A stretch of DNA of 64,000 nt from Porpolomopsis calyptriformis (lineage: Eukaryota > Basidiomycota > Agaricomycetes > Agaricales > Hygrophoraceae). Shown here piece by piece: positions 34,992-63,227 of the stretch (position 1 is the first letter of the stretch; each line of letters begins with the position of its first letter). The stretch covers positions 1,219,780 to 1,283,779 of the forward strand of contig OX621173.1 in NCBI GenBank assembly GCA_951640195.1, written 5' to 3'. The position numbers and the translations under genes are program-made. The notes under the pieces were generated by a model. The model saw only the letters and a list, made by a program, of their open reading frames with translations. It searched no databases and had not been told where the DNA came from.

Positions 34992-36305
34992 TCATGATCT
35001 GCATAGTGTGTCCATTTGAGCATCATGCCGGATAAGCAGCAGCTTTACAATGGAATCATGCCCATTTTTAGCTGCATACCAAACAGGCGTTCGACCATGG
35101 AAGTCACGCGAGTTGACTTGAATGTCATCCCGAGTAAGCAGCAGTTGTATGATAGCATCATACCCATTCTCAGCTGCATATGAAAGGAGCGTTCGACCCC
35201 ACGAGTCCTTCCAGTCCGCTCGAACGTCATGCCGAGCAAGCAGCAGTGTTGCAATGGCATTACGCCCTTTCTTAACTGCATATGAAAGGGGGGTTTGACC
35301 ATACCAGTCCCTCGAATCCACCTGAACATCATCCCGAGCAAGCAGCTGTTTTACGATGGCGTGAAACCCATTCTCAGCTGCATAAGAAAGGGGTGTCCGA
35401 CTTCCCGAGTCCTTCGGGTCTACTTGAATGTCATCTCGACCAAGTAGCAGTTGTATGATGGCACCATGCCGATACTCAGCTGCATACGAAAGGGGCGTTC
35501 GGCCATCTGAGTCCTTCAAGTTCAGTTGAATATCCCGCCGAGCAAGCAACAGCTTTACAACGCCATTGCGTCCTCTCCTAGCTGCATAGCAGAGGGGTGT
35601 TCGACCATGGGAGTCACGCGAGTTGACTTGAATGTCATCCCGAGTAACCAGCAGTTCGACGATGGTACCATTCCCATTCCCAGCTGCATATGAAAGGAGA
35701 GTTCGACCATACGAGTCCTTCGAGTCCACTTGGACGTCATCTCGAGTAAGCAATAGTTGCACGATGGAATCACGCCGATACCCAATTGCATACGAAAGGG
35801 GCGTTTCACCATCCAAGTCCTTCGCGTCCGCTTGAACTTCCTGCTGAGCAAGCAACAGCTTCACAACGCCATCGCATCCTCTCATCGCTGCATACAAGAG
35901 GGGTGTTCGACCATATGAGTCTCTCGAATCTGCTTGAACATCATCCCGAGCAAGGAGCAGTTTTACCCTGACATCATTCCCATCCTCAGCTGCATACGAA
36001 AGGAGCGTTCGACCCCACGAATCCTTCCGGTCCGCTTGAACGTCATGCCGAGCAAGCAGCAGTGTTACAATGACATAGCGCCGTTTCCTAACTGCATATG
36101 AAAGGGGGGTTTGACCATATAAGTCCATTGAGTCTGCTTGAACGTCGTTCCGAGCAAGCAGCTGTTTTACGATGACATCATGCCCATCCTCAGCTGCATG
36201 TGAAAGGGGCGTTCGACCATCCGAGTCCTTCCAGTCTGCTTGAACGTCATTCCGAGTAAACAGCGTCTTTACGATAGCATTCACGTATGGTGAGCTGAGG
36301 CGAGA
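34992..36305 (-). repeat. Ankyrin array, 102-bp unit, about 12.5 copies
   Basis: Units of the form GRTPLSYAAxxGxxxIVKLL plus LARDDVQADSKDSY repeat every 102 bp without stops. Repeats 1-3 and 9-11 share unusual features (VKQLL, then GQTPLSYAV with TLLLARHDV, then KDSWGRTLLSYAAE). Repeats 6-7 and 11-12 share TRDDIQVNSRD. These point to duplication of multi-unit blocks. Confidence 0.88.
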
Positions 36306-37303
36306 CAATAATGGCGAAACCTGATTGGTGGAGATATATAGCATATCAACTGACGACTTATCCAGGCTGATTGAACGAAGATTGGGGTTGTACGCAAGAT
36401 TAATGTAATTTTCGTGAACAGCTATGAGACCAAGTCAGTCAGATAAACTGCAAGGATGACATACTAACCTTCTGCGTCGATGATGGAATACGGACCATAC
36501 AGTTCCAGATGCTCAAGATGCGTATCTAGTGTCTTGAGAAGTTCACCCACTGCTTGTGTATTTCCTGGATACAACCTTCGGAAGGAGAGGACGGATACAT
36601 GGGGATGTGACTCAAGACACAGAAGCCGATTGAAGAAATTTGATTGGGAGGAGGACAGAGCGATGGATTTTAAACTGCGGGGTAGAGGGATTACTGGTTC
36701 ATTGTAAAATCTACAATGCATCCCCCAGCATTGAAGGCTTGTCAAGGATGGGAATGATGCCATGAATTCGTTTGCCTGCTGCGCTGTCCCAAAGAAGGCG
36801 TCCACCCAGAGTTCCTGGACATTTTGGAAGCCCGATAATATTATTGCCCGAGCGGCATCATCGAGGACTCCCCAGTCTAAACCACCAAGATCAAGTGTGG
36901 TGACGTTTGGTAGGCATGTCGCAACGAGGGACCAAGTTTCGGTCGCAAATGCCCCGAACATGGACAGGTGGCGTACGTATGTGCGTGGGTTGGTTAGCGA
37001 ACTTGTGAGACCTATCATATCAAGGAAACGTCTGTCCTTCCATCCGCCTGCGAGGTGAATCCTATAAAAGATGTGATACCTGCTGGGATGTAGAAAGGCT
37101 TTGCAAGTCAAGCTGCAAGCACGTAGGGTAATCTGATCATTGTGGAGGTTATCAATGATAAGATAGTACAACTCCATGGGAAGACGGGAATGGGTTTTGG
37201 ATTGCGCTTCCCTCGACAAGGTGACGAGCATTGGATGATGTGAAGGCGGCAACACAGACTGGGGGTTTTTCCAAAAGGGTGAGTGTATATACTGAACGGG
37301 CAT
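34992..37303 (-). CDS. F-box protein fused to an ankyrin array (about 12 repeats)
   Basis: Candidate SCF ubiquitin-ligase adaptor with an ankyrin recognition array. The F-box is LPMELYYLIIDNLHNDQITL with CSLTCKAFLHPSRYHIFY. An LRR-like scaffold follows (LPNVTTLDLGGLDWGVLDD, LKSIALSSSQSNFFNRLL). An intron (about 36425-36473) joins SIIDAEG to AVHENYINLAYNPNLRSISL. At LSSPYVN the text switches in frame to AIVKTLFTRNDVQADWKDSD, and then to 12 full 34-residue ankyrin repeats. The unfused relative at 49095-50578 continues at this point with SPHVECVSLILAIP instead. I chose the ATG at 37303 as the first in frame. A true start nearer the F-box is possible. Confidence 0.8.
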
Positions 37304-38740
37304 TCTGACAACGCTGACCGACTTCCCTGTAAGTTGCCGTTGCAGCTTCAAGTCGGGAAAATGTTTCGAAGGGGTGCGGACGAGGTGGCGAAGCGCCAAT
37401 TGGCTAAGTTGCACTGTAAATGGCTTTTGCGAACTCTTACCTTCATCCCCCACTCCAATGGCGACCACCCTCTGAAGGACTTCCTCTTGCCTTCATTCCC
37501 TCTCCACCATAACCTTCAGTTTCAATACAACTCACCAGTGTCTTCCTCCGGTTGTCTCCCAGAGAAATAATCATTCCAAAAAACAGGATACCTTGTTGCA
37601 AGTGTTGTCATCTAGCCTTCACTATCCTGATCCTTTCCATATTGATAGAACGTGATCTTCATCCTCGATGACTGGTTTACGGATCTCTTCAAGTATACCT
37701 TTCATGACAATGTATTCGCGACATCCTCTCTGCGAATCCGTTCCACTGGTTAAGTGAGTCATCCTTACCGCTTTCTCGTCATCGTGACTCCGCCCCCATT
37801 GCCTCTCCGCCCTTGCCATTGTGCTAACTTTCATCTCCCCACCGTGCCTCTCGCCATAGACTAATCTCTTCCCAAACTACAAATGTTCGGAAGGAAGGAA
37901 GGTGGACTGAGATGGACCGAAACTCTCATTGGTTGGATCCTTTTCCTGACATCTTGGCTGGCTTCGCAGCTTGCGAAGGCAACCAAGATGTCAGGGGAAA
38001 GGTCTTCACCAAAATGGCCAGTCGAGACTCGCCGAAATGCTGTATTTTCCACCATATCCCTCGATCAACGAATTTCATTCCTCAATATTTAACGGTCATA
38101 GGACCGCCCTTACATTTCTTGAGTTCCAGCACTCCGTTTCATTCGATCAATTCTGAAAGCGACATTACCCCACCGTTTAACCTTCTGACACGCTAGCCAC
38201 CACAACCGGCATGCGTAACATGAATCGCTCGCATCATTCAATATATGGACTTGATCGTCCTCATTTCAAACAATCGTGATGTTCATTTGACCATAACGGT
38301 ACCGCAATGGTGATGCAGATTCACCCTCACCGATCAACTGAGAATCGGCTCGGCAGAGTATCCCCTTCTAAGCAAACATTATGGCATATTCCGGGTGATT
38401 ATGAGGTGAGGTGTAGGCTAGACAGTATATGAGCTATCATCAGGTATCGTGACCCGTTTCATGCGGAGATAGATGTCATTCCGTGGAGCATATTCCTCCA
38501 AGAAGCCATCCCGACTGCCGACTAGACGATGTCATCAGTGTATCATCTCTGGCTAGGAATCGCTGGGTACTCACAGTATTCATAGAAGCATGGCTAACGA
38601 GGTCCGAAAATAAGTGACCGATCCCTAAGCCTTCACACTCACTCCCGTCATGCCTACCAGAGGGGATCACGGGATCGCCGTCCCTCTTGAAATGGAAGCC
38701 GAGAGCCGCGGCGTCCTAGAAAAAACCCACACACCAGATT
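37304..38740. other. Intergenic, 1.4 kb, with a hairpin
   Basis: Lies between the starts of the F-box/ankyrin gene and the 3' end of the sphingomyelinase gene. No family-supported reading frame. It contains the inverted repeat listed separately. Confidence 0.5.
37939..38002. repeat. Near-perfect 64-nt palindrome (hairpin)
   Basis: The left arm contains CCTGACATCTTGG and CTTCGCA; the right arm contains TGCGAAG and CCAAGATGTCAGG. The two arms pair with only a few mismatches around a 3-nt loop (GCT) near 37970. Flanks keep weaker similarity. It could be a MITE relic, a cruciform or a structured transcript; no ORF explains it. Confidence 0.75.
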
Positions 38741-41254
38741 TCAGACACGAAAGGGAAAAGGTGCTGAGCCAAGAAGACGCACGCAGTTATTTTCTGCCCG
38801 CATCGACCGCATGTCACAAATACTGGCCGTCTGACAGCTGCCATCACAAGGGACAACATCCACACCTCTTGTTAAGAACGTGTTGTACAGCTGGAAGGCG
38901 ATATTGTTGCTTGCAAAGACTTCCGTCAGGTTGTGCCAGAATGCAGGCGTCAGTGCTTGTGATGAGTCATTGAGACCGACAAGGGGTCCGTAGGTTTGAC
39001 GAGCACTATAATAAAGCTCCCAAGGGGCTGGAAAGAAATGAAACGTTCGTCAGGTTGAAGTACTTTGAATTGGATGATTCTCACGGTTCGTTTGGAAGCT
39101 AGGATCGGCCATATTGCCTATGAGTCACGATGAGTGACTTATATAGATAATGTTTTTGGGCGCATACTAATATAAACCCTGGAATCCATGACTTCGTAGG
39201 TGTCCGGGTCGATATCGTAAACCTTGAATGCAGGATTCCCGCCTGCGGAGCATATAAATCCTGGGGAGAGAGAATAGCTGACGGATACACACTTCTTGGG
39301 GTAAGCGATGGTGCAATATAGGCAACGCTGACGGCATTAGCGGCAGTTTGTTCATTGTAATTCGAATACGCGATTTCAAATTGGTCCTGATCAAATTTGT
39401 CAGAGGAAAGCAAGGTGAGGTAGAGTAGGACATACGAAATGACTGTGTCCGAAGAACTGAGCAGCGATAGTGTTTCTGTAACGCTGAACGACTTGATCAT
39501 AGTAATTTGACTATCAGATCCTATGTTAATCGAAATCGCTATAAATAATGTCGAATTGTTGATTACCTGGTCGTGAAGGGTATCCCGTCCGCCTGGTGGC
39601 ATGTGACCAATGATCCATGCACGTTGGCCAGCATCTTCGGCCGCTTGCAGCTCTTGTATCAAGAACCCAAGAATACCATTAGGATCAGGTCTGTGCCGGT
39701 GAGCTGAGTTCTGTTTTCCGATGTTGCAATAAATAGACATACTGAAAAATATCACTGTCGTACAGCCAAAAACTTGTGTTGCGGGTAACTGGTGAGTGCC
39801 GAGTGAATGTGGAAAATTTATCACCCGACTCACTTGTCTTTGTACCAGTATACAGTATTCAGGGATATGATACTGGTCAGAGAACTTATTATCCAATCTT
39901 GCGTGTAGACATCAGAAAGGGTCGTACCGCAAATTGGTCCCAATAGCGATGGTAGAGTAACATCCTGATATATGATCGACTTGGGAGGCAGCCGCAGAAC
40001 CAATCCATTCCTTGAGGAAGATAATCAACAGAAACACAATGGGAGAGGGAAACGAGATAGATACAGTCCAACCCCCGCTTTGAACATCAAAGACCCATTG
40101 ACTAGTTGATGTGGTCGAGGTGGTGTTGCGAGGAAAGCTGTTGAGGGGAGCTGCATCACTGCATGCGTGGTATTAGCGTCTTGATATGGGCGGAAGGAAG
40201 AAAGCTTACTGATTGCCTGAGTTGTAAACGGTCGCGTTAGCAAGGGTTTCTCGGGCTGTCAGAGATCACTGACCAATCACAGGGTACACTGTTGAACCGA
40301 GCTGAGATAACAAATCATTATTGAAGTCCTGCAGGTCGGTAGTAGCCTCGCTACATCAAAAGTCATTCAGAAATGAGTTCATTGGGTGGAGGATTGGAAT
40401 CTCACGTCTGATCTATGAGCCATACAGCAGCTAATGCCGTGGTTAATGGTGTAGACAATAATGAATGGTGTTGTCTTACCCTCCACAACATCTCCCGTAA
40501 AAATGGAGAACGCGTTATTGGGGCTAAATTGTTTTATAGCGGACAGCATCGAATCGGACAATGAGACGGGGGTGTCGCAATGGCCGCTGCCGTTCGGGCC
40601 AGCAGGCACAGTAATAGGACTCGTTTGGTCTGCAAAGTCTCTGCAGCATATAGGCTTTGTGCAGTTTGCCTCTGAACCAGCCTGCAACGCTGAATCAATA
40701 GCAAGAGATGGGAGAGGGTGATGTATAATCACAGTGTAATCCCGATCAATGTGGACGTCGCTGATATGAGTTACCTGGATGGGAGGTCTTCGGGAAGATA
40801 TAAACGACTTGGGATTTGTGGGGGCGGGTTTGGGGAAGATAACAGTGTATGGATTGACAGGAGGTGGTTGGCAGAGGCCTAGAAGCGCGGTGCAAAGCTT
40901 TGTGGCTTGCTGACCGAGCGGGTTGATTAACCTCAGGTCGTGTGAGATTATCGGTCCTTGTTGACTGACTAAACCGGCGCAGACATCTGCATCTTGAACC
41001 TGCATTGAATAGTGAGGAGGCAAGTCGCGTGGAAAAGGGCGACGACTTACATGGAGGTCTTGGCAGACTGTCGTGAAGACGCTCACAAAGGCGGTGTCGC
41101 CGAGGTTGGCGAGACCAGCGAGGGCGGTTAGCAGAACATGGCAGGACGCACAGTCGACCGCATTTTGGAAAGCAGATGAGATGCTATCCACCAAACTAGC
41201 AGAAACAAACGAATGTAGGAGGAAAAGATAGAGGGCGGGACGTGCACTAAACAT
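38741..41254 (-). CDS. Acid sphingomyelinase-like phosphodiesterase (secreted)
   Basis: Hydrolyses sphingomyelin or related phospho-lipids; calcineurin-like metallophosphoesterase fold. The signal peptide MFSARPALYLFLLHSFVSAS is followed by a saposin-B-like Cys segment (DCASCHVLLTALAGL, VCQDLHV). Metal motifs in order: THISDVHIDRDY, IFTGDVVEG, GNHDAAPLNSFP (the GNH is encoded by a 7-nt microexon), AWIIGHMPPGG and a GHSHFDQF-like segment. The C-terminal domain reads PWELYYSARQTYGPLVGLND, TPAFWHNLTEVFASN, and CDGSCQTASICDMRSMRAEN, ending FPFRV at 38741. Many introns (about ten). Complete and probably active, acting outside the cell or in the vacuole. Confidence 0.88.
40210..40216 (-). other. 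7-nt microexon of the sphingomyelinase (GNH motif)
   Basis: On the minus strand the exon GCAATCA lies between a CAACTCAG acceptor and a GTAAGCTT donor. It joins YPVIG to HDAAPLN, supplying the metal-binding Asn-His pair. Introns on both sides are 51-58 nt. Confidence 0.85.
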
Positions 41255-41782
41255 GTCTAACAGAAACAGAGTTCCCTGGTTACTAGCGGGCAGCAGGCTA
41301 AAATAACACTGCGAGACCATCATCGATGATCATGCATGGTCCCAAGTGAGTCCCGCATGATGCCTTCCGGAGATAGCGTCAGTATGAAGACAACAAAGGG
41401 CGGAATGGAACGAGCACGCACCATGCGGCTCAGAATGTCGCCTTTGGGCCAATCAGTATGGGCGGCTGTTGTCCCGCATTTTGCAGTCGCCTTGGTTTCA
41501 GTGATATGAGATGACGTCAGTGCACTGCGCAGAAAGGCATCGGCACTTGGACGTTGGGGCGGACGATGAGGAAGGGTGTAGCCCCATTGGCCATCGTGTT
41601 GTCAACGGTGGTTGGAGACAATCGTCTACTGAGCTATCCTGGCAGTTGTGGAGTCAGTTGGTGTAAGGTTGACGTTACGGTAAATGCTCGTACACTCGAA
41701 CATCCACGCTATCAAGTCATCGCCTCCAGACTTTGTTCTTTCCCATTGAGAGTCAGAACGGTCGCATCCACCACCCCGGGAA
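41255..41782. other. Divergent intergenic region, 0.5 kb
   Basis: Separates the starts of the sphingomyelinase (minus) and RRM (plus) genes and presumably carries both promoters. No coding signal beyond unsupported short frames. Confidence 0.5.
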
Positions 41783-44185: not shown

Positions 44186-44319
44186 TGATTCGAGTTTGGG
44201 TTATGTCTTTTAAATCGCTTGTCCTGTTTTTTTTTTTTTTTTTTTTTCCAGCGGAATTTTTGAATCTCATTGATCAGTCACGTGTTCTTCACCCCTTTCT
44301 TTTTGACATTCAACTCGCT

Positions 44320-45060: not shown

Positions 45061-45119
45061 TACGATGTGACTTTTACATACCTACAATGTCATTCTTTTT
45101 TGACTGAGAGTTCGTCACA

Positions 45120-48960: not shown

Positions 48961-49094
48961 GGTCAGTTGTCGTATAGTGAGAGTGGGATCAAAGAGAGCA
49001 TACCATCAATTGAGCTGAGGAGCTGAAACGTTGAAGACTCGTGGTGAACGAAGTAGCGCTGGATATAGAAGTCATCTTCCAACCACAACCCCTG

Positions 49095-50578
49095 ATGAGC
49101 GCAAACCTCGACATACTCTCCAGACGTATCTTTCAGAAATGGGGTCTAAAGCGTGCGAAGGAGGTTTCAATGGATACACCAGAACAGGAACACCCAATGA
49201 CTTCCCCTCCCCTTCCTGCCCAGTTGTACAATCCAAGCGTCAATGACTTCAACCACCCCTGGGCTTCACTACAAGTGGAATCCAAACCAGAAGACTGTCT
49301 AGCAACCACCACGATATCCCATTCTCCTCTGCCTGTTGAGTTATACCAGCTTATCATTGATAACCTCGGCGATGATCAGGTTGCTCTACGCGCTTGCAGC
49401 TTGACTTGCAAAGCTTTTCTACATGCCAGCAGGTATCACCTCTTTTACAGTGTTCACCTAGCTGGTGGACGGAAGGCTAGACGTTTCCTTGAAAAGATAT
49501 GTCTCTCGAGTTCCCCAACCAGTCCGCGCAAATATGTCCGCCATCTGTCCATGTTCGAGGGGGGAGGCTGCATCCGGTCATCACCCTTTGTGAATGAAAC
49601 ATTGCCTCTCATTGCGACAAACCTACGAAACGTCACCACACTTGATATCGGTGATTTGGATTGGGTGGTCCTTGATGATGCTGCACGGGCGATGATATTA
49701 TCAGGCTTCCAAAATGTCCAGCAACTCCGGATGCATGCCTTCTTCGGGACGTCGCAGCAGGCGAACGAATTCATGGCATCATTCCCATCCCTGACGACCC
49801 TTACATGCTGGGAGATGTGTTGGGGATCATACATCGAACCAGTAATCCCTCTACCCCGCCGATTAAAATCCATCGTTCTGTCCTCCTCCCAATCAAACTT
49901 CTTCAATCGGCTTCTGTGTCTTGAGTCACATCCCCATGTATCCACCGTTTCCTTCCGAAGTGTGTATCCAGGGGATACACGAGCAGTGGGTGAACTTCTG
50001 AAGACATTAGGTTCACACCTGGAGCATCTCGAACTCAATGGTCCGAATTCCATCATCAATGCAGAAGGTCAGCCTATCGCCCTTGCAATTTATCTGAGAC
50101 TGACTTGATTACTCTCGTAGCTGTGCGCGAAAGTCATATCAATCTTGCTCACAACACCAATCTTCATTCAATCAGCCTGGATAACTCGTCAGTGGATATG
50201 CAGCATATCTCTCCCACCGTGGATTCTGTCTCTACATTATTTTCTCACCTCACCTCACCGCACGTGGAGTGTGTATCACTCATACTTGCCATACCTTGTG
50301 TCTTCGCGTTATATGACATGGATTTGGCCGCGATAGAACGCGTTTTCACTCGGCCCCACTGGGCTAATCTTCGGCTGCTTGAAATAGTGACGATTGGTGC
50401 CATGGATGTCAAGCTGGCGGCTCCACCATCCATCAAGGCTCGCCTGCCCGTACTTAACAGTCGCGGAATTGTCCACGTTACAGATTCTCGGAACAGAAAC
50501 TTCAATGATTCCGACATTCTTTTGGACAAATTTCCTTTTGTTATTGGTGATATCGATTCCTCTCTTGGCCATACGTAA
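49095..50578 (+). CDS. F-box protein without ankyrin repeats
   Basis: Unfused member of the local F-box family. Start MSANLDILSRRIFQKWGLK at 49095, matched by MRANLITFPKRIYRKWGLP in the fused gene at 51239. The F-box is LPVELYQLIIDNLGDDQVAL with ACSLTCKAFLHASRYHLFY. The LRR-like part has LRNVTTLDIGDLDWVVLDD, FQNVQQLRMHAFFGTSQQ, LKSIVLSSSQSNFFNRLLCL. An intron (GTCAGC to CGTAG, about 50068-50120) leads to VRESHINLAHNTNLHSISL and then to a natural C-terminus (IERVFTRPHWANLRLLEI to GDIDSSLGHT). It gives the ancestral layout against which the two ankyrin fusions can be read. Confidence 0.8.
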
Positions 50579-51238: not shown

Positions 51239-54200
51239 ATGCGTGCCAACCTCATCACTTTCCCCAAACGTATCTATCGGAAATGGGGTCTTCCAAAACC
51301 TGCGATGTATACCCAACGAGAGCAACCCGAATCGGAAGATACCACGATAACCCATTCCCGTCTTCCCATGGAGTTGTACTATCTTATCATCGATAACCTC
51401 CATGGTGATCAGATTACCCTACATGCCTGCAGCTTGACTTGCAAAGCCTTTCTACATGCTTGCAGGTATCACCTCTTCTACAGTATTCACCTCCCGGACA
51501 ATGGACGTTTCCTTGCGATGATAAGTCTCTCAAGTTCGCCGACCAGTCCATGCACATACGTACGCCGCCTGTCCATGTTCAATAGGGCATTTGCGGCCGA
51601 CACGTTGTCTCTCGTTATGACACACCTACCAAACCTCACCACACTTGACCTTGCTGGTTTCAACTGGGGAGTCCTCGATGACACCGCTCGGGCAATAATA
51701 TTATCCGGCTTCCAAAATGTCCAGCAACTCCGGATAGCCGCCTTCTTTGGCACGTCACAGCAGGCAAACGAATTCGTGGCATCATTCCCATCCCTGAGCG
51801 CCCTAACGTGCTGGGAGATGGTTTGGGAATCATACATCGAACCCGTAATTCCTCTACCCCGCCGATTAAAATCCATCGTTCTGTCCTCCTCCCAATCAAA
51901 CTTCTTCAATCGGCTTCTGTGTCTTGAGTCACATCCCCATGTATCCGCCCTCTCCTTCCAAAAGTTGTATTCCGCGGATACCCCAGCAGTGGGCGAACTG
52001 CTCAAGACATTAGATTCGCATCGTGGGCATCTCAAACTCGATGGTCCGAATTCCAAAGAAGGTTCGAAAGGTTCATACGATACATCGCTCCTTTCAGATG
52101 CAGTATCGAATGGGTATGATACCATTGTAAAACTGCTCCTTGCTCGAGACGACATTCAAACAAACTCGAAGGACTCAGAGGGTCGAACGCCCCTTTCGTA
52201 TGCGGCCGAGCGTGGATATGATGCCATCGTAAAACTACTGCTTGCTCGAGATGACATTCAAGCAAACTCGAAAGACTGGGAGGGTCGAACGCCCCTTTGG
52301 TATGCAGTTAATAATAGGCATGCTGCCATTGTAAAACTGTTGCTCGCTCGGGATGACGTTCAACCAGACTTGAAAGACTCGGATAGTCAACAGCCCCTTT
52401 GGTATGCGGTTAAGAATAGGCAGGATGCCATCGTAGAACTGCTGCTCGCTCGGGATGACCTTCAACCGAACTTGAAAGACTCGGATGGTCAAACCCCCCT
52501 TTCGTATGCAGCTGACCATGGATATGATCACATCGTAAAACTGCTGCTTTCTCGAGATGATATTCAAGCAAACTCGAAAGACTCAAAGGGTCGAACGCCC
52601 CTTTCGCATGCAGCTCATCATGGATATGACGACATCGTAAAACTGCTGCTCGCTCGGGATGACATTCAACCAGACTCGAAGGACTCGGATAGTCAAACAC
52701 CCCTTTGGTATGCAGTTAAGATTAACCATGATGCCATCGTAAAACTGCTGCTCGCTCGAGATGACGTTCAACCAAACTCGAAAGACTCGGATGGTCAAAC
52801 GCCCCTTTGGTATGCAGTTAAGAATAGGCACGATGCCATCGTAGAACTGCTGCTTGCTCGGGGTGACGTTCAACCAGACTTGAAGAACTTGGTTGGTCAA
52901 ACCCTCCTTTCGTATACGGCTGAGAAGGGGTATGATGCCATCGTACAGCTCCTGCTTGCTCGGGATATTGTTCAAGCAGACTCGAGGGATGTGTATGGTC
53001 GAACGGCCCTTTCGTATGCAGCTGAGAAAGGGTATGGTGTCATCGTACGGCTGCTGCTTGCTCGGGATGATGGTGAAGCGAACTCGAAGGACTTGGAGGG
53101 CCGAACGCCCCTTTCGTATGCCGTTAAGGGTTGGCATGAGACCATCATACAGCTGCTGATCACTCGGGATGACGTTCAAGCAGACTTGAAGGACCCAGAG
53201 GGTCGAACGGTCCTTTCGTATGCAGCTGAGACTGGGCATGATACCATCGTCCAACTACTGCTTTCTCGGGATGACGTTCAAGCAGACTCGAGGGACAATA
53301 ATTGTCGAACGCCCCTTTCATATTCGGCTCAGTATGGGCATGAAGCCATAGTAAAACTGCTGCTCGCTCTGGATGACGTCCAACCAGACTCAAAAGACTT
53401 GGATGGTCAGACGCCCCTTTGGTACGCAGTTAGTAATAGGCACGATGCCATCATAAAGCTGCTACTTGCTCGGGATGACGTTCAAGTGGACTCGATAGAC
53501 ATGCGTGGTCGAACGCTCTTTTTGTATGCAACTAAGATTGGGTATGATCGCGTCGTAAAGCTTCTCCTTGCTCGGGATGAGGTTCAAGCAGACTCAAGGG
53601 ACTCATATGGTCAAACACCCTTTTCGTATGCGGCTCAGAATGGGTACGGTGCCATCGTAAAGCTCCTGCTTGCTCGGGATGACGTTCAAGTGGACTTGAT
53701 AGACATGCGCGGTCGAACACCCCTTTCGTATGCAGCTGAGAATGGGTATGATGCCATCATTAAACTGCTGCTTGCTCGGGAAGATGTTCAAGCGGACTTG
53801 AAAGACTGGCGTGGTCGAACACCCCTTTCATATGCAGCTGAGAATGGGTATGATGCCGTCACAAAACTGCTGCTTGCTCGGGATGACGTTCGAGCAGACT
53901 CGAGGGACAGGCATGGTCGAACGCCCCTTTCCCGTGCAGCTCAGCATGGGTATGATACCATCGCAAAGCTCCTGCTTGCCCGGGATGACGTTCAACCAGA
54001 CTCGAGGGAGTCGTATGATCGAACGCCCCTTTCGTATGCAGCTGAGAATGGGCATTGTGCCACTGTGGAACTGTTTCTTGCTCGGGATGATGTTCGAGTG
54101 GACTTGATGGACCAGGATGGTCGAGCACCCCTTTCATATGCAGCTGAGAATGGGTATCATGCCATCGTGAAATTGTTTCTTGATCGGGTTGACGTTGATG

Positions 54201-54631
54201 TCGACTTGATGGACCGGAATGGTCAAACACCCCTTTCATATGCGGCTAAGTATGGGCATCATGCCATCGTAGAGCTCCTGCTCGATCAACATGGTGTTCG
54301 AAGGCACCCCCCGACTGCCGTTCGAGCAGACTCGAAGGACTTGTGTGGTCGAACGCCCCTCTCATACGCAGCTGAGAATGGGCATCATGCTGTTGTACGG
54401 CTGCTCCTGGCTCGGGATGACGTTCAAACAGACTCGAAGGACCCCGAGGGTCAAACGCCCTTTTCATATGCAGTTAAGAATAGGCATCTTGCCGTCATGC
54501 GACTGTTCCCTGATCATAGCATTCCACGTACTTGGAGGCAACGTGCTTGGAGGCAACGGCTTACTCCGTGTGTTACGAGATATTCTGGTATGTTCCCAAA
54601 TACCACCTGTTTAATCGCATCCAATCCTTGA
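51239..54631 (+). CDS. F-box protein fused to an ankyrin array (about 24 repeats), single exon
   Basis: Candidate SCF adaptor. Start MRANLITFPKRIYRKWGLP. F-box LPMELYYLIIDNLHGDQITL, ACSLTCKAFLHACRYHLFY; LRR-like part LPNLTTLDLAGFNWGVLDD and LKSIVLSSSQSNFFNRLLCL. At LDGPNS, the place where the paralogs have their exon-intron junction, the protein switches to KEGSKGSYDTSLLSDAVSN and then to GYDTIVKLLLARDDIQTNSK, the ankyrin array. The intron of the paralogs is gone. About 24 units of 34 residues follow; unit 21 carries an 8-residue insertion (RRHPPTAV). The array ends at NRHLAVMRLFPDHS and a short non-repeat tail. Over 1,100 residues stay open in one exon. Confidence 0.85.
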   Translation: MRANLITFPKRIYRKWGLPKPAMYTQREQPESEDTTITHSRLPMELYYLIIDNLHGDQITLHACSLTCKAFLHACRYHLFYSIHLPDNGRFLAMISLSSSPTSPCTYVRRLSMFNRAFAADTLSLVMTHLPNLTTLDLAGFNWGVLDDTARAIILSGFQNVQQLRIAAFFGTSQQANEFVASFPSLSALTCWEMVWESYIEPVIPLPRRLKSIVLSSSQSNFFNRLLCLESHPHVSALSFQKLYSADTPAVGELLKTLDSHRGHLKLDGPNSKEGSKGSYDTSLLSDAVSNGYDTIVKLLLARDDIQTNSKDSEGRTPLSYAAERGYDAIVKLLLARDDIQANSKDWEGRTPLWYAVNNRHAAIVKLLLARDDVQPDLKDSDSQQPLWYAVKNRQDAIVELLLARDDLQPNLKDSDGQTPLSYAADHGYDHIVKLLLSRDDIQANSKDSKGRTPLSHAAHHGYDDIVKLLLARDDIQPDSKDSDSQTPLWYAVKINHDAIVKLLLARDDVQPNSKDSDGQTPLWYAVKNRHDAIVELLLARGDVQPDLKNLVGQTLLSYTAEKGYDAIVQLLLARDIVQADSRDVYGRTALSYAAEKGYGVIVRLLLARDDGEANSKDLEGRTPLSYAVKGWHETIIQLLITRDDVQADLKDPEGRTVLSYAAETGHDTIVQLLLSRDDVQADSRDNNCRTPLSYSAQYGHEAIVKLLLALDDVQPDSKDLDGQTPLWYAVSNRHDAIIKLLLARDDVQVDSIDMRGRTLFLYATKIGYDRVVKLLLARDEVQADSRDSYGQTPFSYAAQNGYGAIVKLLLARDDVQVDLIDMRGRTPLSYAAENGYDAIIKLLLAREDVQADLKDWRGRTPLSYAAENGYDAVTKLLLARDDVRADSRDRHGRTPLSRAAQHGYDTIAKLLLARDDVQPDSRESYDRTPLSYAAENGHCATVELFLARDDVRVDLMDQDGRAPLSYAAENGYHAIVKLFLDRVDVDVDLMDRNGQTPLSYAAKYGHHAIVELLLDQHGVRRHPPTAVRADSKDLCGRTPLSYAAENGHHAVVRLLLARDDVQTDSKDPEGQTPFSYAVKNRHLAVMRLFPDHSIPRTWRQRAWRQRLTPCVTRYSGMFPNTTCLIASNP
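52070..54525 (+). repeat. Ankyrin array, 102-bp unit, about 24 copies
   Basis: Strict 34-residue period. Two sub-types alternate: a 'LWYAVKNRHDAIVELLLARD' type and a 'LSYAAENGYDAIVKLLLARD' type, with LWYAV units at 2, 3, 6, 7 and 13. One unit is lengthened by 24 nt near 54296-54320. Confidence 0.88.
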
Positions 54632-54639
54632 TGGTAGTT

Positions 54640-54915
54640 GTGTTCACGCCACACAAAACAGCGGCCCCGCGGCTTGGTCCTGCAATGTATTTGATATCGA
54701 CAGACTCTAACGACCACCATGGTCAAACGCCCCTTTGTATGTAGCTGAGAATAGGGATTGTTTTATCTTAAAGCTGATTTCTCGGTGTGATGTTGAAGCG
54801 GACTCAAAGGATTCGCTTGGTCGAACCCCGCTTTTGCAGCTGGGAATGGTGTATATGCTATTATAAAATTGGTTGCTTGCTCAGGACAATGTCCAAGGAC
54901 TCGAAGTAGATATAA
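54640..54915 (+). pseudogene. Ankyrin relic downstream of the F-box/ankyrin gene
   Basis: After the stop at 54631, text such as GGTCAAACGCCCCTTTGTAT (54720-54739) and GAAGCGGACTCAAAGGATTC (about 54795) keeps the repeat consensus, but frame breaks and stops fill it. It is the leftover of further repeats and ends just before the NACHT gene promoter. Confidence 0.75.
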
Positions 54916-54956
54916 GGGATTGATCACGTGTCTGTCTCCATCTCACCACCGAAAGA

Positions 54957-57381
54957 ATGTCCAACACTCGTCCGATGCTTAACGCACAAAATATTAGCTT
55001 TGACAACAATCAAGAAGTCAACGTCGTTGCCCGGGATCAAATTGTCAATAACTTCAACTCAAATTACAATATCGATGGTAAGTAATTATTAATAAGCTTT
55101 ATTTCACAAACCGATGAATTGAATGATAAGACTCAGAGCGCCGAGACATCACATTCTGGCTATCTCCTCTCAACTTCAAGGCCTCACAGAGCCAATTTTT
55201 ACAGATCCGTGAAAAGGGGACGGGAAACTGGCTGCTCGAATCCCCCACATTCATGAATTGGCGTGATGGAACGTCGCAAGTATTGTGGTGTCCCGGAGAT
55301 CGTAAGATTTATCTACCTCTGTGACTCCGATCTGATCAATTGTTTTTCGTCCAGCTGGGGCCGGAAAGACGATCCTTGCGTAATAGCATCGTCTACGTCG
55401 CTCATCGGTTCAAGGCTAATCGCTGCTGCCCTCTAGATCGGTCGTTGTAAACGATCTCCAAACATTCTTCAAAGACCGCAATGTTGGCATAGGATGCATA
55501 TACTGCAACTACAAAGAGCAGACCATTCAAACAGTCACCAACCTTATTGCGAGTCTACTCAAGCAGTTGATCCAAGATCGTCCTTGCTTATCCGACAATG
55601 TCAAGCCATTTTATGATCGTCACAAGGTCCAGGGTACCTTTCCCACGCTTGATGAACTTATCGAATTGTTGGAGCTGGAAATCAAGACATACACCAAAGT
55701 ATTCTTTGTCGTGGATGCCCTGGATGAATGTTCCGACAGCAACAGATCTCGGATTAAGCTGTTAAAGGCTCTTCGGTCATTATCCGGATCCATTAACCTG
55801 CTAGTGACGTCGCGCGATCTCCCTTCCATCAAACAGCACTTTCCCGATGCACAGCAGCTCCGTATTCGTGCGACTGACGAAGACGTAGCGAAATACGTCC
55901 AAAGCCAACTTACCGATTGCCCGGGTCTGGTTAATCTGCAAGACTTTGCTACAAAACGAATTGTTGGCAGTGCCAGAGGCATGTGAGCATCTCTAACACA
56001 TTTAATAACCTTTCGAATCTGACCATGTCGCAAGGTTTTTACTAGCACGTTTGCATATAAACGCACTTCTAGAACAGGATAGCGAAGAAGCTGTGCTTCA
56101 TACCCTGGACAGTCTTCCAGACGAAATAGATAAAATTTACGACGAAGCTATGAAACGAATTGAACGACAAGCGAACACAAGAGAGTTAGCGATGCAGGTT
56201 CTTTCGTGGGTTGTATACGCGTCTCGACCTTTGTCTATCGAGGAACTTCAACATGCTCTTGCTGTTTCACCCAAGATGATGGAGATGAACCGTCGTTCTC
56301 TCGTCTTCGAGTGGAAACTCACTTCTGTTTGCGCTGGACTGGTAGTGATCGATGAGGAACGTCGTATTGTTCGCCTTGCTCGTGAGTAGAACAACCTTCG
56401 ATACGATGATGTCTTCATTGTGGATTCAATACAGACTACACAACTCAACAATATTTTGAAAATCAACGGGAATCTCGATTTCCCGACGCTGAGGCTTCAA
56501 TTTCGGCGACATGTCTTACTTATCTTTCATTCGACGTATTTTCGCGCGGCTACTGCAATGACGATGCCGAGTTCGAATCCCTCTTGAAAGAGAACCCTCT
56601 TCTTGATTATGCGGCACGGAACTGGGGCCATCACGCACGCCGACGCCCAAAAAGTATCATAAACTTGGCGATCGATTTCCTTAGGGATGGATCTAAAGTT
56701 GCATGTGCAAGTCAAGTTATGTTGGTGTCTGTCAATCAGTGGCTTGGTCGCAGTCAATACTTTCCGAGAAATTTTTCTGGAGTCCATATTGCTGCGTACT
56801 GGGGCTTGGATGAGATTGTGGGCGCCGAGCTTGACGGCGAAGCATATCCAGATGGGGCTGACAGCGATGGCCGAACCCCGCTTTCATATGGAGCCGAAAG
56901 AGGGCATGATGCCGTCGTGAAGCTGCTGCTTGCTCGGAACGACGTTCAAGCTGACTCGAAAGACTGGAATGGTCGAACACCACTTTCATATGCAGCTTTG
57001 AATGGCCACGATTCCATCGTAAAGCTACTTCTTGCTCGGGATGACGTTCAAGCGGACTCGAAGAACTCGTCTGGTCAGACGCCCCTTTCGTATGCAGCCA
57101 GGAATGGGCATGATGCCATCGTAAAGCTGCTGCTTGATCGGAATGACGTCCAAGCGGACTCGAAGGACTCATATAGTCGAACGCCCCTTTCGTATGCAGC
57201 TCAAAATGGGCACGATGCTATCGTAAAGCTGCTACTCGCCCGGGACAACGTTCAAGCCGACTCGAACTCGGATGGTCGAACGCCCCTTTTCTACGCAGCT
57301 TGGAGTGGGCATGATGCGATCGTAAAGCTGTTGCTTGCTCGGGACGACGTTCAAGCGGACTTCAAGAACTCATATAATTGA
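54957..57381 (+). CDS. NACHT-ankyrin receptor 1 (5 repeats, array truncated)
   Basis: Fungal NLR-like STAND ATPase. N-terminal NISFDNNQEVNVVARDQIV, intron, then WLSPLNFKASQSQFLQI and NWLLESPTFMNWRDGTSQV. The P-loop GDPGAGKTILA is rebuilt across a GTAAGA intron (about 55302-55355). A further intron gives SVVVNDLQTFFKDRNVG. Walker B VFFVVDALDECSD, sensor LLVTSRDLPS, then (after an intron at about 55984-56033) FLLARLHINALLEQDSEEA and PDEIDKIYDEAMKRIER, a winged-helix-like VVYASRPLSIEELQHAL, and NPLLDYAARNWGHHARR. Five ankyrin units follow (56865-57381). The NACHT part is fully open. The array stops at a TGA where a GGTCGA codon pair would stand. Confidence 0.9.
56862..57381 (+). repeat. Ankyrin array, 5 copies
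   Basis: Units at 102 bp; the fourth is one codon shorter (DSNSD instead of DSKDSD). Very close to units of NACHT-ankyrin receptor 2. Confidence 0.88.
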
Positions 57382-57520
57382 AAGCCTCTTTGGTATGCAG
57401 CTGACAATGGGCATGGTGCCATCTTAACGCATCCTCTTAACGATGCTGCTTGCTGACGTTCAACCAGGCTCAAAAGACTGGTGCTGTCGAACGCCCATTT
57501 TGTATGCTTTGTAAGTCATC
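57382..57520 (+). pseudogene. Ankyrin relic after NACHT-ankyrin 1
   Basis: Beyond the stop, CTCTTTGGTATGCAGCTGAC, GGGCATGGTGCCATC and TGTCGAACGCCCATTTTGTA still match the repeat, but deletions and stops break it. The gene once had at least one or two more units. Confidence 0.8.
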
Positions 57521-57897
57521 GCGGATTACTTACTTCTTGGCGCTACTGTAGCATATCCCTGTACCCTCCTGTGTATATTTTTGTACGACTTTTGTATGAC
57601 CACAATCAGACTTCAGTGCAACTATTATTTGATTACCATCTGACTTTTGAACGACTTTTACACGACTAAACTGACATTTCTATCAAATCTAAACATGCAA
57701 TGAACATTCCAAAGCTCTAACCGGATCGCAGTTGGGTTGTCGCCAATCTTTTGCAACCCATCCCTCTGCAATCTCATTCTTTCTCCAATTTTGTGAGTCG
57801 TGAGTTATTCACGTACCTAACACTCATGGATATTTTCATTTTTCATTTGTCGGTATGACGAGGTGGATCACGTGTCTGCCTTACCGGAAACAACACC
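57521..57897. promoter_or_regulatory. Upstream region of NACHT-ankyrin 2 with CACGTG
   Basis: A GGATCACGTGTCTG block with CACGTG at 57869-57874, 24 nt before the ATG. The first NACHT gene has TGATCACGTGTCTG (CACGTG 54925-54930) at nearly the same distance, so this element was kept through the duplication. Confidence 0.6.
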
Positions 57898-60800
57898 ATG
57901 ATTAACGCGCAAAATCTTAGCTTTGACAATAGCCAAGGAGTCAACATTGTTGCCCGGGATCAGTTTATCAACAATTTCAACTCAAGTTACAATGATGGTA
58001 AGTTATCAGGCTTCAATTCACAAATCTATGAATCAAATCGTGACTCAGATCGTTGCAACGTTGCACTCTGGCTATCTCCTCTCAACTTCAAGGCCTCACA
58101 GAGCCAATTCCTACAGGTCCATGAAATGGGGACCGGAAACTGGCTGCTCGAATCCCCAACATTCGTGAATTGGCGTGACGGAATGTTGCAAACATTGTGG
58201 TGTCCTGGAGATCGTAAGGTTTATCTACCTCTGTGACACCGACTTGATTGATTGTTTTTGTACAGCTGGCGCTGGAAAAACAATCCTTGCGTAATAGCAT
58301 CGTCTACGTTGCTCGCCGATTCAAGGCTAACCGCGCTTACCCTCTAGGTCGGTCGTTGTAAACCATCTCCAAACTTTCTTCAAAGACAGTAATGTTGGGA
58401 TAGCATGCATATACTGCAACTACAAAGAACAGACCACACAAACAGTCTCCAACCTTATTGCAAGTCTACTCAAGCAGTTCGTCCAAGATCGCCCATTCCT
58501 ATCTGACAACATCAAGGCGTTTCATGACCGTCACAAAGTCCAAAGTACACTGCCCACGCTTGACGAACTTATTGAACTGTTGAAAATGGAAGTCAAGACA
58601 TACGCAAAAGTATTCATTGTGGTGGATGCCCTGGATGAATGCTCTGATAGCAACGGAACCAGGATAAAATTGTTAAAGGCTCTTCGGTCATTCTCTGGAT
58701 CCATTAGCCTGATGATAACATCGCGCGACCTTCCTTCGATCCAACAGTACCTTCGTGATGCACAGCGAATCCATATTCGCGCGACCGACGAAGATATAAC
58801 CAAATACGTCCAAACCCAGCTTTTTGATTTCCCAGATCTAGTTAATCTGCAAGCCATTGCAACGAAACGAATTGTTGACAGTGCAAGAGGCATGTGAGCA
58901 TCTCATATACATTTAATAATGTTGTGGATTTGACCTTCTGGCAAGGTTTTTACTAGCGCACTTGCATATAAACGCACTCCCAAAACAGAATAGCGAGGAG
59001 GCTGTGCTTCAGGCCCTGTATAATCTTCCAGACAAGATAGATCAAATTTACGACGAGGCTATGGAACGAATTGAACGGCAAACGGACACAAAAGATTTAG
59101 CGATGCAGGTTCTATCATGGTTGTATATGCGTCCCGACCATTGTCTGTTGAAGAGCTTCGACATGCACTCGCTGTTTCGCCCAAAACGACGAACATCAAC
59201 GATCGAGCTCTCGTCTTCAAAGCGAAGCTGACTTCTGTGTGTGCGGGACTCGTTGTGATTGACGAGCAACGGAACATTGTACGCCTCGCTCGTGAGTAAA
59301 AAACCATTGGTCTGAACATATATTCAATATACATTCTATCCAGACTACACAACTCAACAATATTTTGAGAAACAACGGGAATCGAGATTCCCGAACGCTG
59401 AGGTTTCAATTTCGGAAACCTGTCTGACCTACCTTTTGTTCAACGTATTCTCCCGTGGCTACTGCAATGACAATGCCGAGTTCGAATCCCTTCTAAAAGA
59501 CAACCCTCTTCTTGACTACGCGGCACGGAACTGGGGCCATCACGCACGTCGACACCAAAAGAGTATCATAAACTTGGCAATGGATTTCCTCGTGGATGGA
59601 TCTAAAGTTGCATGTGTTAGTCAAATCATGTTGGTGGCTGTCCAACGTTGGTATCCTTACAGTCAATGCTTTCCGAGGAATTTTTCAAGCGTCCATATTC
59701 CCGCTTATTGGGGCTTGGAGGAGATTGTCCAAGGCCAGCTTGATGATGAGGCATATCCAGACTACGCCGACGGCGACGGTCGAACCCCACTTTCATATGC
59801 AGTTGAAAGAGGGCATAATGCAGTTGTGAAGCTGCTGCTCATTCGGGATGATGTTCAAGCGGACTCAAAGGACTCGTGTGGTCGAACGCCCCTTTCGTAT
59901 GCGGCTGAGAATGGGCATGATGCCATCGTGAAGCTACTCCTTGCTCGAGATGACGTCCAAGCGGATTCGAAGCCCTCGGATGGTCGTACCCCTCTTTTGT
60001 ATGCAGCTCAGAACGGGCATGATGCAATCGTAAAGGTGCTACTTGCTCGGGATGATGTTCGAACAGACTCGAACGACTCCAATGGTCGAATGCCCCTTTC
60101 ATACGCAGCTTGGCATGGGCACGATGCCATCGTTAAACTTCTACTTGCTCGGGATGATGTTCAAGCTGACTCAAAAGGTTGGAATGGTCAAACGCCCCTT
60201 TCTTATGCAGCTGAGAATGGGCATGATGCCATCGTGAAGCTGCTTCTGGCTCGGGATGACATTCAAGCAGACTCGAGCGACTTGTACGGTCGAACGCCCC
60301 TTTCGTACACAACGGAGAATGGGCATGATGCCATCGTGAAGCTGCTGCTTGATCGAAATGATGTGCAAGTGGACTCGAAAAGCTGGAACGGTCGAACACC
60401 CCTTTCGTATGCAGCTGCGAGTGGGTATGATACGATTGTAAAGCTGCTGCTGGCTCGCGGTGACGTTCAACCCGCCTTCAAGGACTCATATGGTCAAACC
60501 CCCCTTTCACATGCCGCTGACAATGGGCATAATGTCGTCGTAAAGCTGCTGCTTGATCGGGTTGATGTTCAAGTGGACTCGAAAGGCTCGAATGGCCGAA
60601 CTCCCCTTTCGTATGCAGCTGAGCGTGGGCATGAGACCATCGTGAGTCTGCTGCTTGCCCGGGATGACGTTCAAGCGGACTCGAAAGACTCGTATGGTCA
60701 CAGCCCCCTTTCGTATGCAGCTGAGAATGGGCACGATCGCGTCGTAAAGCTGCTCCTTGCTCGGGATGACGTTCGAGCTAACTCGCAAAGCTGGAATGGT

Positions 60801-63227
60801 CGAACACCCCTTTCGTATGCAGCTGTGAGTGGCCATGATGCCATCGTGAGGCTGTTGCTTGCTCGAGACGACGTTCAAGCAGACCCGAAAGACCGGCATG
60901 GTCGAACGCCCCTTTGGTATGCAGCGCAGAAGGGGTATGATGCCATTGTGAACTTGCTGATTGCTCGGGATGACGTTCAAGCAGACTCGAAGGACTCGGA
61001 TGGCCGAACCCTTCTTTCGTATGCAGCTGAGAATGGGCATGGTGCCATCGTGAACCTGCTATTTGCCCAAGGTGACGTTCAAGCAGACTCGAAGGACTCG
61101 TATGGTCGAATGCCCCTTTGGTATGCAGCTCACAATGGGCATGATGTTGTCGTGCGCATACTACTTGCTCGGGATGACGTTCAAGCGGACTCGAGGGACC
61201 CGAATAGTCGAACGCCCCTTTCGTATGCAGCTGAGAATGGACATTATACCATCGTGAACCTGCTGCTTGCCCGGGATGATGTTCAAGTTGATTCGAAGGA
61301 CGCCAATGGTCGAACGCCCCTTTCATACGCCGCTGAGAGTGGACATAGTGCCATCGTGGACCTGCTGATTGCCCGCGATGGCGTTCAAGTGGACTCGAAG
61401 GACTCCAATCATCGCACGCCCCTTGGGTATTCGGCTTGGAATGGGCATGATGCCATCGTGAAACTGCTGCTAACTCGGGACGACGTTCAGGCGGATTCCA
61501 ACGACTCGTGTGGTCGAACGCCCCTTTCATATGCAGCTAAGAACGGGCACGACACCATCGTGAAGCTGCTGCTTGCCCGGGATGACGTTCACGCAGACTC
61601 GAAAGACTTGTACGGTCGAACACCCCTTTGGTGTGCGGCTCAGAGGGGGCATGATGCCATTGTAAAGCTACTTCTTAGTCGTGATGACGTTCACGCAGAC
61701 TCGATGCCCTCAGATGGTCCAACGCCCCTTTGGTATGCCGCTGAGAATGGGGATGATGCCATCGCGAAGCTGCTGCTTGCCCGAGATGACGTTCAAGCGG
61801 ATTTGAAGGACTTCAATGGTCGAACGCCCCTTTCGTATGCAGCTTGGATTGGGCATGATGCCATTGTGTACCTGTTGCTTGATCGTGATGACGTTCAAGC
61901 CGACTCAAAGGACTCGGATGGTCGAACACCACTTCTATACGCAGCGGAGAACGGGCATGATGTTATCGTAAGGCAGCTTCTTGCTCGGGACGACGTTCGA
62001 GCGGACTCGAAGGACTTGTACGGTCGAACGCCCCTTTTGTGCGCTACTGAGAAAGGGCATGATACCATTGTGAGCCTGCTACTTGCTCAAGACGAGGTTC
62101 AAGCCGACTCGAGGGATTCCAATGGTCGAACGCCCCTCTCATATGCAACTGAGAATGGGCATGATATCATCGTGGGCCTGCTGATTGCTCAGGATGACGT
62201 TCAAACTCACTCAAAGGACTCATGTGGTCGAACACCCCTTTCGTATGCAGCTGAGAATGGGTATGATGCCATTGTGAACATGCTGCTCGCCCAAGATGAG
62301 GTTCAAGCAGAATTGAAAGACTTGTACGGTCGAACGCCCCTTTCGTATGCAGCTCACAATGGGCATGATGTCATCCTTCGCCTGCTGCTTGCTCAGAATG
62401 ATGTTCAAGCGAACTCGAAGGACTCGCACGGTCGGCCACCGCTGTCGTATGCAGCTGAGAATGGGCATTATGCCATCGTGAACCTGCTGCTTGCTCGGGA
62501 TGACGTTCAAGTTGATTCGAAGGATGCCAATGGTCGAACGCCCCTTTCATATGCAGCTGGGAATGGGTATGATGCGGTCGTGAATCTGCTGCTAGATCGG
62601 GATGACGTTCAAGTCAACTCGAACGACTCGTATCGCCGAACCCCCCTTTCATATGCGGCTCAGAACGAGCATGATACCACCGTAGAGCTACTACTGGCTC
62701 GGGATGACGTTCAAGCGGACTCGATGGACTTATACGGTCGAACTCCCCTTTCATATGTGGCTCAGACGGGGAATGATGCCATCGCAGAGCTGCTTCTTTA
62801 TCGGGATAACGTTCAAGCGAACCCAAAAGACTCGTATGGTCGGACACCCCTTTCGTATACAGCTGAGAATGGGCATGATACCATCGTGAACCTGCTGCTC
62901 GCTTGGGACGAGGACATCCAAGCAGATTTGAAAGACTTCAATGGTCGTACGCCCCTTTCGTATGCGGCTGGGAATGGGCATGATGTTGTTGCGAAGTTGC
63001 TTCTTGCTCGGGATGATGTTCAAGCAGACGCAAAGGACTTGTATGGCCGAACGCCTCTTTCGTATGCAGCTGAGAATGGGCATGATGCCATCGTTAAGCT
63101 GCTGGTCGCTCGGAATGACGTTCAAGCAGACTTAAAAGACTTGGATGATCGAACACCCCTTTTGTATGCAGCCGATGGAGGGTATGATGCTGTCGTAAGG
63201 TTGCTGCTTGCTCAGGTTGACATTTAA
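57898..63227 (+). pseudogene. NACHT-ankyrin receptor 2 (34 repeats) with a 1-nt frameshift
   Basis: Tandem paralog of the previous gene with the same exon plan. MINAQNLSFDNSQGVNIVARDQ, WLSPLNFKASQSQFLQV, GDPGAGKTILA across an intron, VVVNHLQTFFKDSNVGI, VFIVVDALDECSD, LMITSRDLPS, FLLAHLHINALPKQNSEEA. At 59119-59120 the sequence reads TCATGGTTGTATATG where receptor 1 has TCGTGGGTTGTATACG, so one G is missing. Frame moves from QVLSW to the frame of VVYASRPLSVEELRHAL. Beyond this, everything to 63227 is open: NPLLDYAARNWGHHARR and 34 ankyrin units. Either a recent null allele, an assembly error in the G run, or a split product. No intron solves it. Confidence 0.85.
59756..63227 (+). repeat. Ankyrin array, 102-bp unit, 34 copies
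   Basis: 34 units with consensus GRTPLSYAAENGHDAIVKLL followed by LARDDVQADSKDS. All are open and keep period (one has a single extra codon, AWDEDIQ). Units 12-16 resemble units 24-28, a spacing of exactly 1224 bp (for example GTTGATTCGAAGGA at 61287 and 62511). Confidence 0.92.

What the first reader, a model, noticed from the sequence alone, without database searches (positions are those of the whole stretch)
34992..63227. NLR-type high-identity ankyrin arrays shared between NACHT receptors and F-box proteins
Four arrays with the same 102-bp unit occur in one 28-kb stretch: two behind NACHT domains and two behind F-box/LRR-like scaffolds, on both strands. Units from different gene classes look as similar as units within one gene. 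High internal repeat conservation in fungal NLRs (WD40, TPR, ANK) is established and linked to non-self recognition (HET-E/HET-D type). Its transfer onto an SCF adaptor would link the same recognition surface to ubiquitination. I infer a recognition module moving between effector scaffolds; I do not know of a described example.
Basis: partly seen in the sequence, partly recalled or inferred. Interest (0 to 1): 0.9.

Follow-up and report, generated by a model that had tools for sequence, protein, structure and literature searches.

The report
F-box genes carrying NLR-type ankyrin arrays
In an unnamed fungus, two related genes whose predicted fold suggests that they tag proteins for destruction have lost their own tail and carry instead a long repeat array of the kind that sits mostly on immune-receptor-like genes in the same genome; one of the two looks like a working gene.

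Summary
The four arrays are real and at the stated coordinates. Two F-box genes (A, minus strand; C, one uninterrupted frame) and two NACHT genes (D, E) carry the same 102-bp ankyrin unit. Units are as alike between the gene classes (72-74% nt) as within the F-box arrays (72-75%). They are not "high-identity": no window array reaches the published 85% criterion. The F-box part is predicted to fold as F-box plus LRR (nearest solved structures SKP2, TIR1, COI1, KDM2, FBXL17). A and C are sisters; tandem neighbour B keeps an LRR tail, which ankyrin replaces in A and C at two different junctions. Of 64 ankyrin clusters grouped from the listed hits, 59 sit behind NACHT; of 50 F-box loci examined only A and C have ankyrin. 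So one F-box lineage captured an NLR-type array, once most simply, possibly twice; it is not a generally mobile module. Unit trees lack power to name a donor. C's array scaffold shows purifying selection; A's is indistinguishable from neutral. Most likely C is an SCF adaptor using an NLR-type array as its substrate-binding surface (inferred; no transcript or binding data). F-box-ankyrin proteins are already known elsewhere; the unit pool shared with resident NLRs is the new part.

The parts
36469..37231 (-). gene A exon 1: F-box plus LRR part (start codon inferred)
   Evidence: open frame 37492-36464; 74% aa identity to B and to C; intron donor read
36422..36468 (-). gene A intron, 47 nt, GTTAGT...TAG, same position as the intron of B
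   Evidence: sequence; splicing inferred
36282..36421 (-). gene A exon 2: remnant of the F-box LRR tail, up to SPYV
   Evidence: DNA match of B exon 2 to 36421-36282, 77.4% over 146 columns, the only other copy in the window
34992..36281 (-). gene A ankyrin array, 13 units counting a partial first one
49095..50067 (+). gene B exon 1: F-box plus LRR, no ankyrin
50121..50578 (+). gene B exon 2: LRR tail, the presumed ancestral 3' half (splicing inferred)
   Evidence: a like second exon can be read by eye in some paralogues
51239..52054 (+). gene C, F-box plus LRR part, start codon at the place of B's
   Evidence: (B-C match at 49095/51239)
52055..54631 (+). gene C ankyrin array, 24 units in the same frame as the F-box
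54738..54815 (+). degenerate ankyrin unit after the stop of C
   Evidence: 10.6 bits
54957..57381 (+). gene D: NACHT (55420-55983 and flanking exons) plus 5 ankyrin units; start and exon limits inferred
57385..57423 (+). degenerate ankyrin unit after the stop of D
   Evidence: 15.1 bits
57898..63227 (+). gene E: NACHT (58331-58894 and flanking exons) plus 34 ankyrin units; tandem duplicate of D (82% over 1.9 kb); start inferred
53711..53757 (+). 47-bp exact match of the C array to the E array (62226-62272)

Best explanation
One F-box/LRR lineage beside a NACHT-ankyrin cluster captured an ankyrin array from the genome's NLR unit pool, in place of its own LRR tail, and then duplicated into A and C (shown: same unit pool, loss of the tail, sister relationship; inferred: one capture, later remodelling of the junction). 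In C the product is kept by selection. It most likely works as an SCF adaptor: the F-box docks on Skp1-Cul1 and the ankyrin array, varying at the same surface positions as in the NACHT receptors, chooses what is ubiquitinated (inferred). A is probably the same thing in decline.
Against: No transcript, protein or Skp1-binding data. A, B and C each score below the Pfam F-box-like cut-off of 24.3 bits (14.3, 16.2, 16.7). Other LRR proteins, plant and animal NLRs among them, score nearly as high on the LRR part. A's close unit pairs look neutral (pN/pS 1.03), and A and C have end branches about 3 times that of B (0.19, 0.22, 0.064), as expected of relaxed constraint too. The junctions of A and C differ, so two captures are possible. 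No donor array is identified. Surface dN/dS of 1.42 in the ten F-box pairs rests on 24 against 3 changes, and that those pairs arose after the capture is assumed.
Confidence: 0.5

Rival explanations
1. Recombination by-product: two repeat-rich families that lie side by side fused by accident; the chimeras keep open frames mostly because the capture is young, and neither does anything.
For: A is indistinguishable from neutral; decayed ankyrin units lie after C and D; a decayed array beside a retroelement-like frame exists at C11:1315 kb (read by eye); the stops expected under neutrality in the unit pairs are only 2.5 in A and 3.5 in C, so seeing none has P 0.085 and 0.031.
Against: C's scaffold positions are constrained (p 0.0003) and so is the F-box/LRR part of A against C (p 0.005); both junctions are in frame (A's after inferred splicing).
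Confidence: 0.25
2. Regulator of the NLRs rather than sensor: the ankyrin array pairs with, or competes for the ligand of, the NACHT-ANK proteins and lets SCF turn over receptors or ligand.
For: Same unit pool as neighbouring receptors; C ends about 0.3 kb before the inferred start of NACHT gene D on the same strand; a 47-bp exact match to E is the longest of 231 array pairs.
Against: No binding data; no F-box array is collinear with a sampled array of another class above 0.83 over 3 units.
Confidence: 0.15
3. On origin only (compatible with any of the functions above): two independent captures, one in A (inside exon 2) and one in C (end of exon 1), because the locus is a recombination hot spot.
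For: Different junctions: SPYV|NAIVK in A, GPNS|KEGSKGSYD in C, in different phases of the unit.
Against: Both fall on sister genes and on no other of 50 F-box loci examined; junctions in such arrays could be remodelled by deletion.
Confidence: 0.35

Closest known systems
Fungal NLRs of the NACHT-ANK type (Dyrka et al. 2014, PMC4986451, passages read)
   Same: Genes D and E: NPHP3_N/NACHT part followed by an ankyrin array; variation at the ankyrin surface; repeat exchange within and between members of one receptor family is described there
   Different: A and C have an F-box/LRR head in place of NACHT; none of the four window arrays meets the high-internal-conservation criterion
HET-E/HET-D (HNWD) receptors of Podospora (PMC12222747, passages read)
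   Same: Hypervariable positions in the repeats of a receptor array; occasional very similar units in different genes
   Different: WD40, not ankyrin; there repeats cluster essentially by gene of origin, here within-array identity is no higher than between arrays
F-box-ankyrin proteins: A. nidulans F-box proteins with ankyrin repeats (PMC9744329, figure legend), ankyrin repeats in F-box proteins mentioned in a Dictyostelium paper (PMC9485057, passage), Legionella AnkB (PMC2790608) and myxoma MNF (PMC2842262), the last two seen in the search listing only
   Same: F-box and ankyrin repeats in one protein, thought to feed SCF
   Different: Here 13-24 units drawn from the unit pool of resident NLRs replace part of an LRR domain
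FBXL-type F-box/LRR adaptors (SKP2, TIR1, COI1, KDM2, FBXL17)
   Same: Predicted F-box helices and LRR fold
   Different: LRR tail truncated and continued by ankyrin repeats

Membership tests
F-box/LRR SCF adaptor (genes A, C) | F-box plus LRR fold | tested here: met
   model of C with 42 relatives; 36 of 43 members match F-box-like at E <= 0.1
F-box/LRR SCF adaptor (genes A, C) | F-box match over the curated Pfam cut-off in A and C themselves | tested here: not met
   14.3 and 16.7 bits against 24.3; unfused B also fails (16.2), some paralogues pass
F-box/LRR SCF adaptor (genes A, C) | binds Skp1 and enters an SCF ligase | not testable with these tools
   needs a binding assay
Fungal NLR | NACHT or NB-ARC domain with C-terminal repeats (genes D, E) | tested here: met
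   NPHP3_N E 3.1e-20 and 1.4e-21, Ank_2 arrays; GAGKT read (motif name recalled)
Fungal NLR | NACHT or NB-ARC domain in A and C | tested here: not met
   no listed NACHT hit within 3 kb upstream; only D and E match the NACHT query in the window
High internal repeat conservation (HIC) arrays | over 85% aa identity over at least 100 aa | tested here: not met
   best three-unit runs 0.63, 0.72, 0.77, 0.76 for A, C, D, E; 3 of 23 sampled arrays reach 0.85
Concertedly evolving NLR repeats | units more alike within than between genes, or exchanged tracts | tested here: inconclusive
   within equals between at the DNA level; 47-bp C-E match, P 0.007 for that pair but best of 231 pairs
Positively selected recognition repeats | dN/dS above 1 at surface positions | tested here: inconclusive
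   ten F-box pairs 1.42 on 24 N and 3 S; 54 pairs in other arrays 0.58; all pairs A 1.55, C 2.23

The most novel reading that the evidence does not exclude
NLRs and an SCF adaptor draw on one ankyrin unit pool and still exchange unit sequence (the 47-bp C-E tract), so that new recognition specificities can reach either cell-death signalling or targeted protein degradation: a second effector arm for the same diversifying sensor.
Probability: 0.13. Interest if true: 0.78.

Novelty: new variant of a known kind. Interest (0 to 1): 0.45.

Why it matters
If C is a working SCF adaptor, an NLR recognition array has been put on a degradation scaffold inside one genome, beside its possible source. That would make testable whether the array alone carries specificity and whether fungal self/non-self sensing can be coupled to ubiquitination. 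It also gives a natural head-swap experiment (A and C against D and E, with B as unfused control).

Tried and rejected
Chance adjacency of two genes: rejected for C, whose frame is open through F-box and array and whose F-box lacks its own stop and exon 2. Insertion of an array into an intact F-box gene: not supported, since B's exon 2 has one other copy in the window, the remnant before A's array, and none behind either array (a first try used a query read out of frame). Old separate F-box unit clade: not supported by residues (4 enriched residues in A+C; pairs of other arrays give 0 to 6) but not rejected by trees. Donor search by collinear blocks: nothing above 0.83 over 3 units. Relatives elsewhere: the F-box part searched among proteins of about 650-2060 aa, none of 2726 candidates at E <= 0.001; stand-alone B gave 13 proteins, at most 52% identical, longest contigs 1.2-3.8 kb. 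The source genome seems absent from that database, so absence of fusions in close relatives is not shown. The first protein search was swamped by ankyrin repeats. An F-box-like hit at C3:2305753, 3.3 kb upstream of ankyrin, has NACHT pieces in between. A PDB sequence search with the F-box profile found nothing. Literature searched: no listed title or start of abstract describes this fusion; the word F-box does not occur in the main text of two fungal NLR surveys (PMC9815663; PMC12258605). Papers outside the held library and full texts that I did not open were not checked; those opened were seen in passages only. Rows dropped: the tree used 384 of 402 units (units with stops, the kinase array and five degenerate terminal F-box units left out); searches used 182 units of nine arrays; one search used 327 units, leaving out four diverged arrays and the kinase array; of 86 F-box hits 50 were examined for ankyrin, within about 1.5-2 kb downstream; the 64 ANK clusters are my grouping of the rows shown, whose lists were cut; the 150 F-box-like hits do not include A, B or C, so that list misses members.
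Full report
Setting. The window is part of contig C11 of a 33.5-Mb genome in 17 contigs, from a fungus that I could not name; that it is a basidiomycete is a guess from gene style only. No relatives are held for it.

Observation. Four arrays of a 102-bp ankyrin unit lie at 34992-36281 (A, minus), 52055-54631 (C), about 56866-57381 (D) and 59775-63227 (E), with 13, 24, 5 and 34 units. D and E follow NPHP3_N/NACHT exons and are tandem duplicates, 82% over 1.9 kb. A and C follow F-box/LRR exons. A third F-box gene, B (49095-50578), has the same head, an intron at the same place as A, an LRR tail and no ankyrin.

Is it an F-box? Alone, A, B and C score under the Pfam cut-off (14.3, 16.2 and 16.7 against 24.3 bits), but 36 of 43 family members match F-box-like at E <= 0.1, best 1.9e-5, and paralogues such as C11:1453574 and C11:1664031 pass the cut-off. 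The predicted structure (mean pLDDT 83) has three starting helices, less surely predicted than the rest, and an LRR fold. The best solved structures are SKP2, TIR1, KDM2-type and FBXL17 entries by Foldseek (TM by query length 0.42-0.53) and COI1, KDM2A-type and TIR1 chains on the second look; other LRR proteins score nearly as high on the LRR part. A second model of C with its first units gives a regular ankyrin stack after a poorly predicted joint (residues 240-249 under pLDDT 50, pTM 0.61).

How the fusion was made. B's second exon shows what was lost. A keeps the intron and the first part of exon 2: the DNA match to B's exon 2 runs to 36282 and stops there (77.4%), at SPYV, after which ankyrin begins in the middle of a unit. 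C breaks at the end of exon 1 (GPNS) and enters ankyrin at another phase. No other copy of the lost tail lies in the window. On the tree A and C are sisters (100/98) with B outside, and they share a 7-8 codon gap. Over part of the LRR C is closer to B, 100% in one 60-column stretch, which looks like conversion between neighbours. One capture before the A/C split with later remodelling of one junction is the shortest account; two captures are not excluded.

Where else? Of 50 F-box loci examined (30 given, 20 more, out of 86 hits) only A and C have ankyrin. Of 64 ankyrin clusters that I grouped from the rows shown have NACHT within 3 kb upstream. The five others are A, C, an array on C3 with no recognised head (L050; no NACHT match, and no Pfam domain in five upstream frames), a decayed array at C11:1315 kb beside a retroelement-like frame, and a different repeat family behind a protein kinase on C12 (L049). 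Among 150 listed F-box-like hits none stands directly at the head of one of these clusters; one at C3:2305753 has NACHT pieces in between.

Unit comparison. Mean nt identity across the four arrays is about the same within and between classes. In a tree of 384 units the F-box label changes 15 times, 31 on average when shuffled; the F-box arrays are about as scattered (0.55 and 0.62 changes per unit) as 15 of the 20 other arrays (0.50-1.00), five being tighter (0.15-0.45). Single units of 102 bp do not carry enough signal: F-box units as one clade gives a better likelihood than the quick free search (p-AU 0.75), and ten of ten other groupings tested are likewise not rejected (p 0.16-0.64). Of the six unions of two arrays tried, A+C had the highest likelihood, which would fit a common origin of the two F-box arrays, but the test does not establish it. 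Residue enrichment in A+C (4 residues) is within the range of pairs of other arrays (0-6). So F-box units belong to the NLR pool as far as these data tell; donor unknown.

Surface and selection. Entropy is highest at positions 1, 11, 12 and 34 in both classes, with 14-16 raised further in F-box units. In the model positions 11-12 end the inner helix and 34-1 are the loop between units, the kind of place where Dyrka et al. put selected ankyrin sites (PMC4986451, passages). Close unit pairs of C (six) are constrained at scaffold positions (pN/pS 0.46, p 0.0003); those of A (four) are not (1.03). The 54 pairs from other arrays give dN/dS 0.36 there. At the four surface positions the ten F-box pairs give 1.42, on 24 against 3 changes, the other 54 pairs 0.58. 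The F-box/LRR parts of A and C diverge with dN/dS 0.56, against 0.36 for each towards B. C therefore looks kept; A looks relaxed although its frame is open.

Exchange after capture. The longest exact run between any two of 22 arrays is 47 bp between C (53711) and E (62226), P 0.007 against codon-shuffled arrays for that pair, but it is the best of 231 pairs and identity is 0.63 and 0.73 in the stretches next to it. This is a hint only.

Reading. Shown: the fusion, its head and its unit pool. Inferred: SCF function and ankyrin as substrate surface. Known precedents exist for each half, and for F-box with ankyrin in other organisms; I found no description of an NLR unit pool shared with an F-box gene in the searches, which cover an open-access library only.

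Noticed in passing
L050 (G000:C3:359000-366000), array at 1611-2954: Array of 13 units of the same family, among the most alike in the sample (best three units 0.90 aa), with no NACHT match and no Pfam domain in five upstream frames: a headless or differently headed array.
   Followed up: partly
L049 (G000:C12:1012545-1019000): Protein kinase-like exon (PF07714, E 2.2e-09) followed by an ankyrin array of a different repeat family.
   Followed up: partly
L079 (G000:C11:1315000-1319500): Decayed ankyrin array next to an opposite-strand frame that reads by eye like a retroelement gag/protease; its head is not visible.
   Followed up: partly
window 54738-54815 and 57385-57423: Degenerate ankyrin units after the stop codons of C and D, as if arrays lose units at the 3' end.
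   Followed up: partly
window about 51858-51917 against about 49857-49916: B and C are identical over a 60-column stretch of the LRR part although C is closer to A in most other stretches: conversion-like tract between tandem neighbours.
   Followed up: partly
window about 54970-55080 and 57900-58000: Short N-terminal leaders of D and E are rich in N (for example NVVARDQIVNNFNSNYN); whether they are amyloid-like signalling motifs, as described for basidiomycete NLRs in PMC9815663 (passages), was not tested.
   Followed up: no
G000:C1:3944073 and G000:C9:164327: Two NACHT hits with the same score, identity and one stop on different contigs: perhaps a recently duplicated segment.
   Followed up: no
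window 39099-41329, minus strand: Two frames that read by eye like pieces of a secreted sphingomyelinase/metallophosphatase-type gene between A and B; Pfam found nothing at E <= 0.01.
   Followed up: no
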